From assembly GCA_008363075.1 (NCBI GenBank), contig RHKK01000009.1, positions 1 to 50,569 of the forward strand: a stretch of 50,569 nt of DNA, written 5' to 3'. This document shows, in pieces, positions 5,754 through 32,804 of the stretch. The notes beneath the pieces are model-generated. The model had not been told where the DNA came from, did no database searches, and saw only the letters and a program-made list of their open reading frames with translations. Position numbers and translations under genes: made by a program. Source of the DNA: Candidatus Uhrbacteria bacterium (GTDB lineage: Bacteria > Patescibacteriota > Patescibacteriia > 2-12-FULL-60-25). Position 1 is the stretch's first letter. Each line of letters opens with the position of its first letter.

Positions 5754-5790
5754 CTGAACCCTCCTCTTCGGAGTAAAAGTTGCTGCCGCG

Positions 5791-5819
5791 ACGCTAGCGG
5801 GGAAATAATGGAATGTCAA
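5791..5819 (-). promoter_or_regulatory. Paralog leader promoter, copy 1
   Basis: TTGACA, 17 bases, TAGCGT, followed by a leader with AACTTTTACTCCG that can pair with the GGAG of the ribosome binding site. The block from 5770 to 5820 is almost identical to 7043-7093. Confidence 0.6.
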
Positions 5820-5865
5820 TCCTGATCTATCCCCTCCATCTCCCCTTGTATTCAAGGGGAGCGTC

Positions 5866-5894
5866 TTGACAAACGGGATGAAATAATGAACGTG
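5866..5894 (+). promoter_or_regulatory. Promoter inside the DUF559 element
   Basis: TTGACA, 17 bases, AACGTG (non-canonical -10), seven bases before the ATG at 5902: would give a leaderless mRNA. Confidence 0.4.
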
Positions 5895-5901
5895 GTATTT
5901 C

Positions 5902-6273
5902 ATGAATTATCTTTACAATGATCCGCTTCTTACGGAACGCCGACGCGAGCTGCGTCGATGTTCAACCGATGCAGAGAGGGCGCTCTGGGAACGGTTACGA
6001 GGCAGGCGATTCCAAGGACTTCGTTTTCGAAGACAATTTGGTGTGGATCGATTCATCTTGGATTTTTATTGCCCTCGACTCCGACTGGGAATCGAGGTTG
6101 ATGGCGATATACACTTACATTCACAAGAACGGGATCGTGAACGCGACGAGATCATCGAAGCGCACAACATTCAAGTGCTTCGATTCTGGAATCGCGAGAT
6201 ATTTGAAAACATCGATACTGTTCTGCGACAGATCGCGGTGGCCGTTGAATTCAGAAAACGCCTCCCTTTGTAA
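5902..6273 (+). CDS. DUF559 endonuclease-like protein
   Basis: 123 residues, full length for the DUF559 family, which belongs to the restriction-endonuclease-like fold related to very-short-patch repair (Vsr) nucleases. Seen here: 'RRCSTDAERALWERLRGRRFQGLRFRRQ' (split across 18-45), 'VDRFILDFYCPRLRLGIEVDGDIH' (48-71) with the D-x(n)-E-V-D core, and 'RDEIIEAHNIQVLRFWNREI' at 81-100. The gene is embedded between inverted repeats, and similar hairpins recur at 7113-7183, 23083-23109 and 32713-32798. In related genomes I recall DUF559 genes next to such hairpins. A role in moving these repeats is my inference. Confidence 0.88.
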   Translation: MNYLYNDPLLTERRRELRRCSTDAERALWERLRGRRFQGLRFRRQFGVDRFILDFYCPRLRLGIEVDGDIHLHSQERDRERDEIIEAHNIQVLRFWNREIFENIDTVLRQIAVAVEFRKRLPL

Positions 6274-6315
6274 AAGGGAGGCTGGGAGGGATAGAGCCAA
6301 GCGGATGAAGTCATA

Positions 6316-6339: not shown

Positions 6340-7021
6340 CAGTGGGGATGCCGTGCTTGAGGCGTTCGGGGCCGGAGGCGTTCCGGTTCTCCTCTTCGAG
6401 GAGCTCCTCTTGGAGCGTTTCGACGCGGACACGAGCCCGCTTCAGCTCCTCACGCTTGGCGTCTCGCGGATCGGCAGAAGACTCGAGCCGGAGCTCGGAT
6501 TCGAGGCGCAAGATCTCTTCCTCGATCTCGTCCATCGCGATCCGCATCTCCCGTGCCGTCAGCTCCCAGGATTTGCGCTGCGCTTCGAATGCGACCACGA
6601 GCTCGGTGCGGGCTGCATCGGAGTCGGGAATTCCCAACTCATCACTTGGTCCGTCGAACGAGTGACGCTTGAACCACACATGGATCGGATCACCGTGACT
6701 GAAGCATAGGGTTGTGAGGATATATCTGCTCGATCCCATCTGTCTCAGTTGATCGTAGACGTCTCTCCAAAACTCGATGCGTCTGGGAAACCTTTTCCGA
6801 AGCGCGTCCAGGTTTTCCATGCGAATGCGCAGTCGCTCACGATCCGCGTAGATCGCGACGAGCTGCGCTTCGACCGAGGCCGGAAGCCCGTGGCCTTGCC
6901 ATTTCCGCCGGAGAAGCGCGACGAGCTTCCCCATCCAGCCGAGTTGTACTTCGAGCGCCATGCCGACGACAACCGCGCTCGACCACGCGCCGAGCGCAAG
7001 CGCCAAAATATCCCATTCCAT
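6332..7021 (-). CDS. Membrane/coiled-coil protein, paralog 2 of 3
   Basis: 229 residues; ATG preceded by GGAGGAGG. One hydrophobic span at the N-terminus (about 4-30), then a largely helical, charged protein. A variable middle (about 60-135) contains 'RFPRRIEFWRDVYDQLRQMGSSRY'. The last ~45 residues form a coiled coil ending 'ASGPERLKHGIPTDD', identical over about 24 residues to the end of paralog 3. Function unknown. The conserved ends with divergent middles suggest recombination or fast divergence of the centre. Confidence 0.7.
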   Translation of the reverse strand: MEWDILALALGAWSSAVVVGMALEVQLGWMGKLVALLRRKWQGHGLPASVEAQLVAIYADRERLRIRMENLDALRKRFPRRIEFWRDVYDQLRQMGSSRYILTTLCFSHGDPIHVWFKRHSFDGPSDELGIPDSDAARTELVVAFEAQRKSWELTAREMRIAMDEIEEEILRLESELRLESSADPRDAKREELKRARVRVETLQEELLEEENRNASGPERLKHGIPTDD

Positions 7022-7063
7022 ATCGGACCTCCTCCGATCTTCGGAGTAAAAGTTGCTGCCGCG

Positions 7064-7092
7064 ACGCTAGCGGGGAAATAATGGAATGTCAA
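7064..7092 (-). promoter_or_regulatory. Paralog leader promoter, copy 2
   Basis: TTGACA, 17 bases, TAGCGT; same leader as copy 1. A CTCCG/CGGAG pairing could cover the GGAGG site. Confidence 0.6.
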
Positions 7093-7112
7093 TCAGGGCG
7101 ATGGGCGCGGAG

Positions 7113-7183
7113 GTAGACCACCCCCGGCCCCCTCCTCATGCGAGGAGGGGGTGCCGAGCGATAGCGAGGCGGGGGTGGTCTAC
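7113..7183. repeat. Gene-less hairpin element with 13-base terminal inverted repeats
   Basis: GTAGACCACCCCC (7113-7125) and GGGGGTGGTCTAC (7171-7183) are perfect inverted ends. Inside is CCCCCTCCTC-ATGC-GAGGAGGGGG (7128-7151) followed by GCCGAGCGATAGCGAGGCG. It looks like a 71-base MITE-like relative of the DUF559 element ends. Confidence 0.75.
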
Positions 7184-7206
7184 AAAAAAACGACCTTGTC
7201 AGTCGT
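7183..7206 (-). terminator. Terminator of third paralog
   Basis: ACGAC/GTCGT hairpin overlapping the stop codon and followed by TTTTTTT on the minus strand. Confidence 0.8.
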
Positions 7207-7600
7207 CAGTGGGGATGCCGTGCTTGAGGCGTTCGGGGCCGGAGGCGTTCCGGTTCTCCTCTTCGAGGAGCTCTTCTTCGAGCGCGCGCTCATCGGCGCG
7301 AAGCGCTTTGATGTCGGCCCGGATTTTCGCGAGCTCCGCTCGTCGATGGTCAACGGAAGCGCTCTCCTCCGCTGCAACACGAGTCTGCGAACGCCGCTTG
7401 TGCTTGGACAACTTCTTGCAACCCACCTTGATCGCCAAGCCTCCGGCGATCAGAAGGAAGGTTAGTAGGGCACTTTGTTGCCTGTTGGCCAGCATGCCGC
7501 CATAAACGATGAGTAAAAAGAGGGCGGAGAGCCACAGGCCCGCCACCATCCCGGCCCACATCCACAGGAACGCACGCCGTCCTGCATCGGGTTGCGCCAT
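7199..7600 (-). CDS. Membrane/coiled-coil protein, paralog 3 of 3
   Basis: 133 residues from ATG 7600 (AGGAGG six bases upstream; GTG 7603 is a weaker choice). Two hydrophobic spans at about 11-35 and 44-62, a basic linker, then a coiled coil (about 80-115) and the tail 'ASGPERLKHGIPTDD' shared with paralog 2. It is the shortest of the three and lacks any variable middle domain, so it may show the minimal form: membrane anchor plus conserved coiled-coil tail. Function unknown. Confidence 0.7.
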   Translation of the reverse strand: MAQPDAGRRAFLWMWAGMVAGLWLSALFLLIVYGGMLANRQQSALLTFLLIAGGLAIKVGCKKLSKHKRRSQTRVAAEESASVDHRRAELAKIRADIKALRADERALEEELLEEENRNASGPERLKHGIPTDD

Positions 7601-7637
7601 CACACACCTCCTCCTCGGAGTAAAAGTTGCTCCCGCG

Positions 7638-7666
7638 ACGCTAGCGGAATGTCATAATAAAATCAA
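7638..7666 (-). promoter_or_regulatory. Paralog leader promoter, copy 3
   Basis: TTGATT, 17 bases, TAGCGT. The -35 half differs from copies 1 and 2, yet box spacing is kept at 17, which supports these as the functional boxes. Confidence 0.55.
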
Positions 7667-7696
7667 GACCCCCGCTTGCGGCGGGAATCTTTTTTG
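7664..7696. terminator. Bidirectional terminator after ndk
   Basis: CCCGC-TTGCG-GCGGG followed by AATCTTTTTT on the plus strand; on the minus strand by GGTCTTGATTTT, where it overlaps the next -35 box. Confidence 0.55.
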
Positions 7697-7700
7697 ACGT

Positions 7701-7735
7701 TTCACTCTTCACTCTTCACGTATCACGCTTCATGC
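7701..7735. repeat. Heptad array (TTCACTC type)
   Basis: TTCACTC twice, then TTCACGT, ATCACGC, TTCATGC: five consecutive 7-base units. The ndk stop codon lies in the last unit. Confidence 0.8.
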
Positions 7736-8314
7736 CAGAAACCACTTCGGATCGTATTGGACGCGATCGTTGACGTGCTCGTATTTGTAGAGCTCGACGT
7801 CCGTGAACCAGATCTTGATCTCGTTGTTCGCCTCTTCGACATTGCCGGAGGCGTGGATCAGGTTGCGAAGCGGGCGGTTCTGCGCGTTCGAGAGCGCGTA
7901 GGTGTCGTGCGAAAGGTCACCGCGGATGGTGCCGGGAGCGGACGAAGCGGGTTCGGTCGCGCCGACGAGCTTGCGCACAAGCGACACGGCCATTTCGCCT
8001 TCGAGAACCAGCGCGACGATCGGTGCGGATTTGAGGAACGTCACGAGTCCATTCTTGATGTCCGTGCCGTAAGCGATGTGATCCGGAAACGGAAACGGCT
8101 CGTTGTTGGCCTCGTACTTGGCCTTGGCCTTTTCATACACCGCTTTCATCCATTCTTCCGTCAACGCATAGTGCTGATCGACATCTTCATGGGACGCGTG
8201 GACCATTTTCATGGCAATCAGCTTGAGACCAGCGCGTTCGAATCGCCCGATAATCTCCCCAACAAGGCCGCGCTGGACGCCGTCGGGCTTGATCAACACG
8301 AGTGTTTTTTCCAT
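7730..8314 (-). CDS. ndk: Nucleoside diphosphate kinase
   Basis: 194 residues, longer than the usual ~140-150. It transfers the gamma-phosphate between nucleoside triphosphates and diphosphates. The N-terminus 'EKTLVLIKPDGV' has the ATP-contacting Lys9; the phosphorylated histidine is H154 in 'NLIHASGN'. Extra residues at about 60-95 ('YEKAKAKYEANNEPFPFPDHIAYGTDIKNG') form an insertion that I associate with Patescibacteria-type Ndk. Start is ATG 8314; no Shine-Dalgarno, and the promoter implies a leader of only about five bases. It is divergent from rpmF. Confidence 0.95.
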   Translation of the reverse strand: MEKTLVLIKPDGVQRGLVGEIIGRFERAGLKLIAMKMVHASHEDVDQHYALTEEWMKAVYEKAKAKYEANNEPFPFPDHIAYGTDIKNGLVTFLKSAPIVALVLEGEMAVSLVRKLVGATEPASSAPGTIRGDLSHDTYALSNAQNRPLRNLIHASGNVEEANNEIKIWFTDVELYKYEHVNDRVQYDPKWFLA

Positions 8315-22327: not shown

Positions 22328-23500
22328 ATGCCACAAATCCCCCGCAAACCACGCGCCATCCTGATCGATGTTATTCCGCCGTCGATGGACGCGCGCACGG
22401 CCGCCCGGCGTATGTACGAGCTTGAATCGCTGGTCGGCACATACGGCGGCATCATCGTCGTGAAACAAATCCAAAAACGCGGTTTGCCGGATTATCGTAC
22501 GTACATCGGCCCGGGAAAGCTGGAAGAGCTCGCGCAACTCGCAAAGTCGGAACGGGCGGAAGTGCTCATCATCAATAACTTGATGAAACCGGGGCAGATG
22601 TACAACGTCGCGGAATATCTTCGAAAGCAGAAGCTTCGCATGCAGGTCTGGGATCGCGTGGATCTTATCCTGAAAATCTTCGCCAAACATGCCAAGACGT
22701 CGGAGGCGAAGCTGCAGATCAAGCTCGCGGCGATCCGCCACATGGGACCGCGCATCTTCGGTATCGGGCAGGAAATGATGCAACAAGCCGGCGGCACGGG
22801 CACGCGCGGCGGACAGGGCGAAACGAACACCGAAATGATGAAACGGCACATGTTCGAGCAGGAAAAGAAAACGAAACGGGATTTGGAGCGGCTCGCCGTG
22901 GCGCGCGAGAACCATCGCAAACGCCGTGACCGCGTCGGATTTAAAACCGTCTCGGTCGTCGGATATACGAATGCGGGCAAGTCCTCGCTCGTGAACGCGC
23001 TTACCAAAAAAGGCGCGCTCGTCGCGGACGCGCTCTTCGCCACGCTCGACACGCATATCGGGAAGATGTGGTTTCCGGACCCCCCTGTATCCCCCCTTGA
23101 TAAGGGGGGAATGGGCCGCGGAACGGACGTGCTCATTTCAGACACGATCGGGTTTATCCAGGATTTGCCGCCAAAACTGATCGATGCCTTCCGCTCCACG
23201 CTCGACGAAACCGTGGACGCGGATTTGCTCTTGCATGTGATCGATGTAAGCGATCCGTTCCTGCATGAAAAAATCGCGGAAGTGGAAGATGTGCTGACCA
23301 AGCTCAAGGTGGATGGGGCGCCGAAGATTTATGTGTTCAATAAGATCGATTTGATGAAACGGGCGGGGAAAGGCGTATTGCCATACGCCCCTACACTGAA
23401 AAAACGATATGCCGACTTCGCTCCCCTATTCGTTGCCGCGCATACGGGCGAAGGGTTGGAGGCGTTGAAGGCGGAGATCGGGAAGAGGCTGCTCGCTTGA
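22328..23500 (+). CDS. hflX: GTPase HflX (ribosome-associated)
   Basis: 390 residues from ATG 22328 (in-frame ATG 22298 is possible). HflX splits or rescues stalled ribosomes. N-terminal HflX domain 'RMYELESLVGTYGGIIVVKQIQKRG' and 'YIGPGKLEELAQ'; the coiled middle; then the G domain with 'GYTNAGKSSLVNAL' (P-loop), 'DTIGFIQDLPPKLIDAFRSTLDE' (G3) and 'FNKIDL' (G4). Between strand 'IGKMWFPD' and 'TDVLISDT' there is an extra ~14-residue insert 'PPVSPLDKGGMGRG' encoded by a hairpin repeat. A second palindrome encodes 'GVLPYAPT' near 350. Both keep the frame. No ribosome binding site. Confidence 0.94.
   Translation: MPQIPRKPRAILIDVIPPSMDARTAARRMYELESLVGTYGGIIVVKQIQKRGLPDYRTYIGPGKLEELAQLAKSERAEVLIINNLMKPGQMYNVAEYLRKQKLRMQVWDRVDLILKIFAKHAKTSEAKLQIKLAAIRHMGPRIFGIGQEMMQQAGGTGTRGGQGETNTEMMKRHMFEQEKKTKRDLERLAVARENHRKRRDRVGFKTVSVVGYTNAGKSSLVNALTKKGALVADALFATLDTHIGKMWFPDPPVSPLDKGGMGRGTDVLISDTIGFIQDLPPKLIDAFRSTLDETVDADLLLHVIDVSDPFLHEKIAEVEDVLTKLKVDGAPKIYVFNKIDLMKRAGKGVLPYAPTLKKRYADFAPLFVAAHTGEGLEALKAEIGKRLLA
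23083..23109. repeat. In-frame hairpin element inside hflX
   Basis: CCCCCCTT-GAT-AAGGGGGG (23091-23109) preceded by CCCTGTAT. Same hairpin style as the DUF559 element ends. It adds about 14 residues to a surface loop before the G3 motif. Confidence 0.7.
23372..23395. repeat. Palindrome followed by CCTAC inside hflX
   Basis: GGCGTAT-TGCC-ATACGCC then CCTAC; read in frame as 'GVLPYAPT'. Confidence 0.6.
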
Positions 23501-32704: not shown

Positions 32705-32712
32705 GGTTCGGA

Positions 32713-32798
32713 CCTAACTCCCTCAGTCCCTCTTGTACTCAAGAGGGAAGCGCTCTTACGCCCTCCTCTTTCGCAAAAGAGGAGTTGGAGGAGTTAGG
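32713..32798. repeat. Gene-less two-hairpin element with inverted ends
   Basis: CCTAACTCC (32713-32721) and GGAGTTAGG (32790-32798) are perfect inverted ends. Next to each is a hairpin: TCCCTCTTG-TACT-CAAGAGGGA (32727-32748) and CTCCTCTTT-CGCA-AAAGAGGAG (32763-32784). The order matches the DUF559 element (end, hairpin, AGCG-TCTT, hairpin, end) but the gene is missing, so it looks like an internally deleted form. Confidence 0.75.
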
Positions 32799-32804
32799 AA
32801 CGAT

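What the first reader, a model, noticed from the sequence alone, without database searches (positions are those of the whole stretch)
5827..6294. DUF559 nuclease gene bounded by inverted hairpin repeats: a possible minimal mobile element
The two ends (CTATCCCCTCCA + hairpin and CTATCCCTCCCA + hairpin) face each other and enclose only the DUF559 gene, whose stop codon and promoter lie in or beside the ends. DUF559 proteins have a Vsr/restriction-like nuclease fold. A nuclease moving hairpin-ended DNA would parallel REP-associated transposases but with an unrelated enzyme.
Basis: partly seen in the sequence, partly recalled or inferred. Interest (0 to 1): 0.7.

Follow-up and report, generated by a model that had tools for sequence, protein, structure and literature searches.

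The report
DUF559 nuclease with triplex-forming repeat ends
A tiny bacterial gene for a DNA-cutting enzyme sits between two matching folded-DNA end signals, and the same arrangement recurs across many bacterial phyla, even in frame inside essential genes, which suggests that this enzyme is the missing partner that spreads a family of orphan triplex-forming repeats known in E. coli since the 1990s.

Summary
At 5827-6294 a DUF559 gene is bounded by two inverted ends. Each end is a hairpin plus a short spacer plus a tail that is the mirror image of the hairpin's purine arm: an intrastrand purine-triplex motif. All three DUF559 genes of this genome have such ends, each with its own sequence. Across 168 DUF559 loci from many phyla, 61% (own class) and 41% (elsewhere) carry this motif within 250 bp, against 1.5% of 673 control genes. 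Solo copies and paired deletion-like derivatives are scattered in the same genomes. Elements sit in frame inside leuS, elp3, metH, aroA, tsaC and tatD, and sister genomes have the empty or hairpin-only site. The motif is the BoxC/PIT/TM_ECO repeat class, for which no mobility enzyme was known; E. coli's own ycjD (DUF559) lies beside two copies. The structure model matches the I-Bth0305I homing-endonuclease catalytic domain and Vsr. Best reading: a REPtron-like element whose Vsr/EDxHD-type nuclease spreads triplex ends. The association is well supported; the enzyme's action on the ends is inferred. I found no paper linking the two.

The parts
5827..5861 (-). Left end: tail 5827-5836 (outermost tag CTATCC), 3-nt spacer 5837-5839, hairpin 5840-5861. 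Read on the - strand: CTCCCCTTG-aata-CAAGGGGAG-atg-GAGGGGATAG
   Evidence: mirror-tail detector hit at 5841-5861
5902..6273 (+). DUF559 (PF04480, YcjD-like) endonuclease, 123 aa; E25, D54, E65, D67, D78 invariant and H71 at 90% or more in 42 homologs
   Evidence: AlphaFold2 pLDDT 89.2, PDB matches 3HRL, 3R3P, 1CW0
6260..6294 (+). Right end: hairpin 6260-6282, 1-nt spacer, mirror tail 6284-6294 (outermost tag GGATAG); contains the stop codon of the DUF559 gene
5827..6294 (.). Whole element (468 bp), lying between the 57-bp repeat upstream of one coiled-coil gene and the terminator-like end of its tandem paralog
7113..7183 (-). Solo palindromic copy of the same end class (hairpin 7129-7151 with mirror tail GGGGGTGGTC) in the paralogous intergenic site
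32711..32800 (.). REPIN-like inverted pair of ends (hairpins 32728-32748 and 32763-32783, tag GTTAGG) between an adenylosuccinate-lyase-like and an RluD-like gene; the tag resembles the ends of the DUF559 element on contig C13 (L003)
23076..23114 (-). Solo triplex-type end (hairpin 23091-23110) inserted in frame in hflX (adds about PPVSPLDKGGMGRG)

Best explanation
The region is an autonomous copy of a REPtron-like mobile element. A small Vsr/EDxHD-type endonuclease (DUF559) is bounded by two inverted copies of its own cognate end. Each end can fold on one strand as hairpin plus mirror tail (purine-motif triplex) and carries a short outermost tag. SHOWN here: the gene-end association across phyla, the element-specificity of the ends, the mirror-tail architecture, solo and paired derivatives that match the ends of a DUF559 element in the same genome, in-frame residence in conserved genes, and empty or end-only alleles at one such site. 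INFERRED: the nuclease recognises its folded ends and tag (probably when single-stranded, for example at replication forks) and cuts there or at the target; the element or an end pair is copied or joined into the break during repair. Deletion derivatives that keep both end types spread in trans as solo REPIN-like repeats, the BoxC/PIT/TM class. Read-through copies survive inside essential genes.
For: Association: mirror-tailed end within 250 bp of 57/93 (own class) and 31/75 (other phyla) DUF559 genes against 10/673 control genes; both sides 26, 18 and 1. 85% of inverted arms hold a stem of 8 bp or more against 3.3% of shuffles. Tail mirrors arm at 0.9 or better in 54% of 171 ends against 7% with swapped tails; direct repeat 14% against 5%. 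Arm G faces tail G in 460/469 cases and arm A faces T or A in 210/219, the purine-triplex code; 3-nt spacer in 52/78. Left-right end similarity within an element 34 against 19 between elements of one genome, p 5e-10. Tags 76% identical within an element against 37% between. Solo copies: 20 in 702 kb of DUF559-positive genomes, 0 in 461 kb of DUF559-negative ones, with both end types of the resident element. One motif family: 50/121 DUF559-positive against 17/165 negative genomes, OR 6.1, within-family shuffle p 3e-4. elp3: element, hairpin-only and empty alleles at one codon position. leuS: same insertion point in Bacteroidota and Patescibacteria. Closest solved folds apart from 3HRL: I-Bth0305I homing endonuclease domain Z 12.2, Vsr Z 8.8.
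Against: No cleavage or movement shown. No target-site duplication and no near-identical empty site: the elp3 alleles are about 70% identical, and the E. coli alleles are replacements. 39-59% of DUF559 loci fail the strict end test, and 17 genomes carry the motif without a detected DUF559. DUF559 is nearly absent from plasmids (6 of 72,556 records) and had no hit in phages, unusual for an actively transferring element though also seen for RAYTs (from general knowledge). E. coli motif copy number does not obviously follow ycjD presence.
Confidence: 0.62

Rival explanations
1. Homing-endonuclease-like element: DUF559 cuts an uninterrupted target site and the gene is copied in by double-strand-break repair; the palindromic ends are recognition or protection sequences, not transposon ends.
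For: The nearest solved relative apart from 3HRL is the catalytic domain of the EDxHD homing endonuclease I-Bth0305I (Z 12.2). DUF559 sits at the same codon position of leuS in two phyla, and those DUF559s are each other's nearest neighbours; likewise elp3 and metH.
Against: Most copies are intergenic and at unrelated sites; solo end pairs without the gene are dispersed. The window protein is 123 aa, and the model shows no separate DNA-binding region like that of I-Bth0305I.
Confidence: 0.2
2. Passenger: the palindromic ends are moved by another enzyme (for example a RAYT/IS200-type Y1 transposase) and DUF559 hitch-hikes or uses them as a landing site.
For: Y1_Tnp is common in the class (154/273 genomes) and weakly associated with the motif (OR 2.7).
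Against: The window's genome and G244, G257 and G236 have no detected Y1_Tnp although they hold 3, 5, 2 and 1 DUF559. DUF559 predicts the motif among Y1-negative genomes (OR 7.3), while Y1 is not significant within DUF559 strata (p 0.056 and 0.15). Ends are specific to each DUF559 copy.
Confidence: 0.13
3. Domesticated genome-maintenance nuclease: DUF559 processes triplex or cruciform DNA formed at these repeats (repair, or control of its own gene) and no longer moves anything.
For: Mostly chromosomal, few copies per genome, nearly absent from plasmids and phages. A Caulobacter DUF559 protein, VsrA, acts like a repair-type nuclease in vivo (PMC12907096). The triplex motif is linked to local rearrangement in E. 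coli (PMC4666352).
Against: 0-5 copies at different sites among nine genomes of one genus, in-frame insertions in several housekeeping genes, and element-specific ends point to dispersal, at least in the past.
Confidence: 0.12
4. Ordinary gene between intrinsic terminators or GC-rich hairpins; the end similarity is composition or chance.
For: The right hairpin is terminator-like on the - strand.
Against: Control genes show such ends in only 1.5% of cases, the reversed-pattern control is 0 in 286 genomes, ends occur inside reading frames, and tails and tags match left to right.
Confidence: 0.02

Closest known systems
BoxC / PIT element / TM_ECO intrastrand triplex motif (Holder et al. 2015, PMC4666352)
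   Same: Same architecture: C-rich arm, loop, G-rich arm, 3-nt loop, mirror G-rich tail. Occurs as inverted type A + type B pairs and in many genomes. TM_ECO no. 9 (1,351,239-1,351,204) is the copy 3' of ycjD found here.
   Different: Described as orphan repeats, with no transposase or integrase found nearby. The paper's main text does not mention ycjD or endonucleases. The window's ends belong to the class but do not match the exact E. coli consensus.
REPtrons: REP/REPIN repeats with RAYT (TnpA_REP) tyrosine transposases (Di Nocera et al. 2013, PMC3733652)
   Same: A chromosomal gene flanked by its own tagged palindromes, with dispersed solo and paired non-autonomous copies.
   Different: Enzyme unrelated (DUF559, not Y1/HUH); mirror tails instead of a GTAG tag; no Y1_Tnp detected in the window's genome.
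EDxHD homing endonuclease I-Bth0305I and Vsr
   Same: Fold (Z 12.2 and 8.8) and conserved E, D, D, H, D residues.
   Different: No intron or intein around it; 123 aa only; repeat ends and solo copies.
E. coli YcjD, Caulobacter VsrA and other DUF559 proteins
   Same: Same Pfam family; YcjD detects Vsr by profile search (PMC1189080); VsrA causes a DNA-damage response in vivo.
   Different: Not reported, in the papers I could search, as part of an element with ends.
Rickettsia palindromic elements (from general knowledge)
   Same: Palindromes kept in frame inside conserved genes.
   Different: No gene of their own.

Membership tests
DUF559 (PF04480) | Profile match over the curated cut-off | tested here: met
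   112 bits against 20.6, E 1.7e-32
Intrastrand class II triplex motif (BoxC/PIT/TM class) | Y-arm, loop, R-arm, loop, R-tail mirror to the R-arm (G.GC, A or T.AT) | tested here: met
   Both window ends; 54% of 171 ends at 0.9 or better against 7% with swapped tails. Sequence capacity only; folding not measured
TM_ECO proper | CCCTCNCCC N3-6 GGGNGAGGG N3 GGGNGAGGG | tested here: not met
   No exact match in the window element; exact matches beside ycjD in E. coli
REPtron (RAYT + REP) | Y1/HUH transposase gene between the palindromes | tested here: not met
   The gene is PF04480; no PF01797 match in the own genome
REPtron (RAYT + REP) | GTAG (or, for orphan REPs, CGTC) tag at the foot of the hairpin | tested here: not met
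   Outermost tag is CTATCC/GGATAG here; tags vary by element
REPIN-type organisation | Dispersed inverted pairs of the same palindrome without the gene | tested here: met
   Window 32711-32800; pairs in G067 with the two end types of resident DUF559 elements
Homing endonuclease gene | Enzyme cuts the element-free allele at the insertion point | not testable with these tools
   Needs purified protein; only same-site residence in leuS and elp3 was seen
EDxHD/Vsr-type nuclease | PD-(D/E)XK-like fold with the E, D, H, D residues | tested here: met
   E25, D54, D67, D78 invariant and H71 at 90% or more; fold matches. Catalysis not tested
Insertion sequence / MITE | Target-site duplication at the ends | tested here: inconclusive
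   None visible at 5827/6294; no near-identical empty site available

The most novel reading that the evidence does not exclude
A new class of prokaryotic mobile element in which a single-domain Vsr/EDxHD nuclease, not a transposase or recombinase, recognises intrastrand-triplex ends through structure and an element-specific tag. It is the source of the BoxC/PIT/TM repeats across bacteria and can insert in frame into essential genes, so that the nuclease persists as an extra domain of the host protein.
Probability: 0.45. Interest if true: 0.93.

Novelty: new variant of a known kind. Interest (0 to 1): 0.85.

Why it matters
BoxC/PIT triplex repeats have been known in E. coli since the 1990s, form triplexes in vitro and mark unstable loci, but nobody had an enzyme that could spread them. 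DUF559 is a widespread family still without an established role. Linking the two makes both questions testable in E. coli K-12, which carries ycjD and 23 motif copies. If right, it adds a REPtron-like element with a non-transposase nuclease, and a natural route by which a nuclease domain lands in frame inside leucyl-tRNA synthetase, Elp3 or methionine synthase.

Tried and rejected
(1) A simple 12-mer search for the ends: too weak on its own. (2) RAYT as mobiliser: tested with PF01797, disfavoured. (3) Plasmids and phages as carriers: 6 plasmid records, no phage match. (4) E. coli ycjD presence/absence as a clean empty site: strains without ycjD carry the eef operon instead (PMC12817139), so it is a replacement. 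(5) E. coli ypfG-tkt motif as an empty site: the alternative alleles carry a classical GTAG REP. (6) A copy-number link with ycjD in E. coli: not evident from the places-per-record counts. (7) Paralogous site in the window as an empty site: it holds another solo end, so it is not empty. (8) Pontibacter and Cyclobacterium empty sites: relatives of those loci could not be searched; only flank comparisons were possible. (9) Terminator or promoter explanation: and the control genes.

Full report
OBSERVATION. The two ends exist at the stated coordinates and enclose only the DUF559 gene. The stop codon lies in the right hairpin. No promoter-like site was found. The window is contig C12 of a 1.10-Mb genome, which holds two more DUF559 genes; both are also bounded by inverted hairpin ends, each with a different sequence.

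IS IT MORE THAN CHANCE? I collected DUF559 loci from the same class and, through the search for related loci, from other phyla including Bacteroidota, Cyanobacteria, Armatimonadota and Patescibacteria. The best inverted alignment between the 300-bp flanks has median 37, against 19 for flanks paired across loci; the same loci tested 600 bp further out never reach 36 (0/96). Of 330 control genes from 20-kb stretches of class genomes, 10 reach 36, against 21/49 and 39/74 DUF559 loci. Two of those ten control genes are 23S rRNA intervening-sequence proteins with their own inverted repeats, so the control is conservative.

ANATOMY OF AN END. 85% of arms hold a stem of 8 bp or more, against 3.3% of shuffles; stem changes between left and right ends are often compensated (16 of 21 and 24 of 33 double changes keep a Watson-Crick pair). 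Beyond the stem lies a tail that mirrors the purine arm: 54% of 171 ends match at 0.9 or better, against 7% when tails are swapped between loci. G in the arm faces G in the tail (460/469) and A faces T or A (210/219), with a 3-nt spacer in 52 of 78. This is the pairing code of an antiparallel purine-motif triplex. At the outermost tip is a tag shared by the two ends of one element (76% against 37% between elements) even where the stems differ. In 20 of 38 scored elements the tails point outward, as in the window; in 18 they point toward the gene, probably because the gene lies between two end pairs (inference).

CO-VARIATION. Within single genomes with several DUF559 genes, left and right ends match within an element (median 34) but not between elements (19), p 5e-10. 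In G067 two dispersed repeat families have the tags and both end types of two resident DUF559 elements, as expected of internal-deletion derivatives. Mirror-tailed hairpins away from DUF559 number 20 in 702 kb of DUF559-positive genomes (14 of them in G067) and 0 in 461 kb of negative ones. One exact motif, whose backwards control gives 0 hits, occurs in 50/121 DUF559-positive and 17/165 negative genomes. Shuffling within families gives p 3e-4, and Y1 transposases do not explain it. In the direct test 57/93 and 31/75 DUF559 genes have such an end within 250 bp, against 10/673 control genes.

INSERTION SITES. DUF559 with its ends lies in frame inside conserved genes: leuS (three genomes in two phyla, always in the same turn of the CP1 domain), metH, aroA, tsaC, elp3 and, by its sequence, tatD. 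In a genus of the window's family the elp3 site exists with the element (G244, G264, G286), with a lone hairpin of 45-48 nt (G288, G289), with another palindromic insert (G195) and without insert (G287; G257 also gives an uninterrupted match). In the window itself a lone end sits in frame in hflX, a pair lies near 32.7 kb, and a solo copy lies in the intergenic site paralogous to that of the element.

THE ENZYME. The AlphaFold2 model (pLDDT 89) matches 3HRL, the catalytic domain of homing endonuclease I-Bth0305I (Z 12.2) and Vsr (Z 8.8). The candidate catalytic residues are conserved. A Caulobacter DUF559 protein causes a DNA-damage response when a methyltransferase is lost (PMC12907096).

KNOWN OR NEW. 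The repeat class is known: BoxC/PIT/TM_ECO, shown to form triplexes in vitro and linked to rearrangement in E. coli, with the explicit statement that no mobility functions were found nearby (PMC4666352). Its copy no. 9 is the one beside ycjD, and the ST69 allele has a second copy at the ycjD stop codon. Of 14 held papers naming DUF559 none pairs it with inverted repeats, and the REP survey sorts most repeats into GTAG and CGTC types (PMC3733652). I therefore treat the link as new, with the limit that subscription papers and preprints were mostly not searchable.

MECHANISM AND CONFIDENCE. That DUF559 and cognate ends form one dispersing unit: about 0.85. That the protein acts on the ends and drives spread: about 0.6. 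Whether by transposon-like joining or homing-like cut-and-copy: open; the fold and the leuS and elp3 sites favour cut-and-copy, the solo pairs favour end recognition.

CAVEATS. Loci were drawn from the nearest homologs and top profile scores, so the fractions apply to this YcjD-like subset. Genomes are related. The detectors were developed on the same loci, although control genes, swapped tails and random stretches were independent. Identification of hflX, purB-like, rluD-like and tatD rests on profile matches where cited and otherwise on sequence reading.

Noticed in passing
L162:12705-13076 and L161:17719-18105: Two 23S rRNA intervening-sequence protein genes (PF05635) are flanked by inverted arrays of short units ((AAGGACT)n and TAGTCCTAGTACTTAGTCCTAG): possibly a second small-gene element type with its own ends.
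   Followed up: partly
window 5765-5821, 7038-7094, 7607-7647: A 57-bp repeat (two exact copies, one partial) lies upstream of tandem coiled-coil-like genes, each copy downstream of a shared terminator-like segment; the intergenic gaps have collected different palindromic inserts.
   Followed up: partly
L171 flanks of 6962-7936: A tRNA-synthetase gene flanked by TGTCATTCCCGC-type repeats resembling the CGTC/dRS3 REP superfamily, another repeat type without a known mobiliser.
   Followed up: no
L055, L095, L107 (leuS): Leucyl-tRNA synthetases predicted to carry an intact nuclease domain in the CP1 editing domain, in Dokdonia and two Patescibacteria.
   Followed up: partly
L085: A methionine synthase gene with two DUF559 insertions in one reading frame.
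   Followed up: no
NC_000913 ycjD (1351407-1351760) and ST69 allele L157: In K-12, 12 nt of the triplex motif at the ycjD stop codon are missing relative to ST69; L156 has a 106-bp deletion removing the gene's 3' end.
   Followed up: partly
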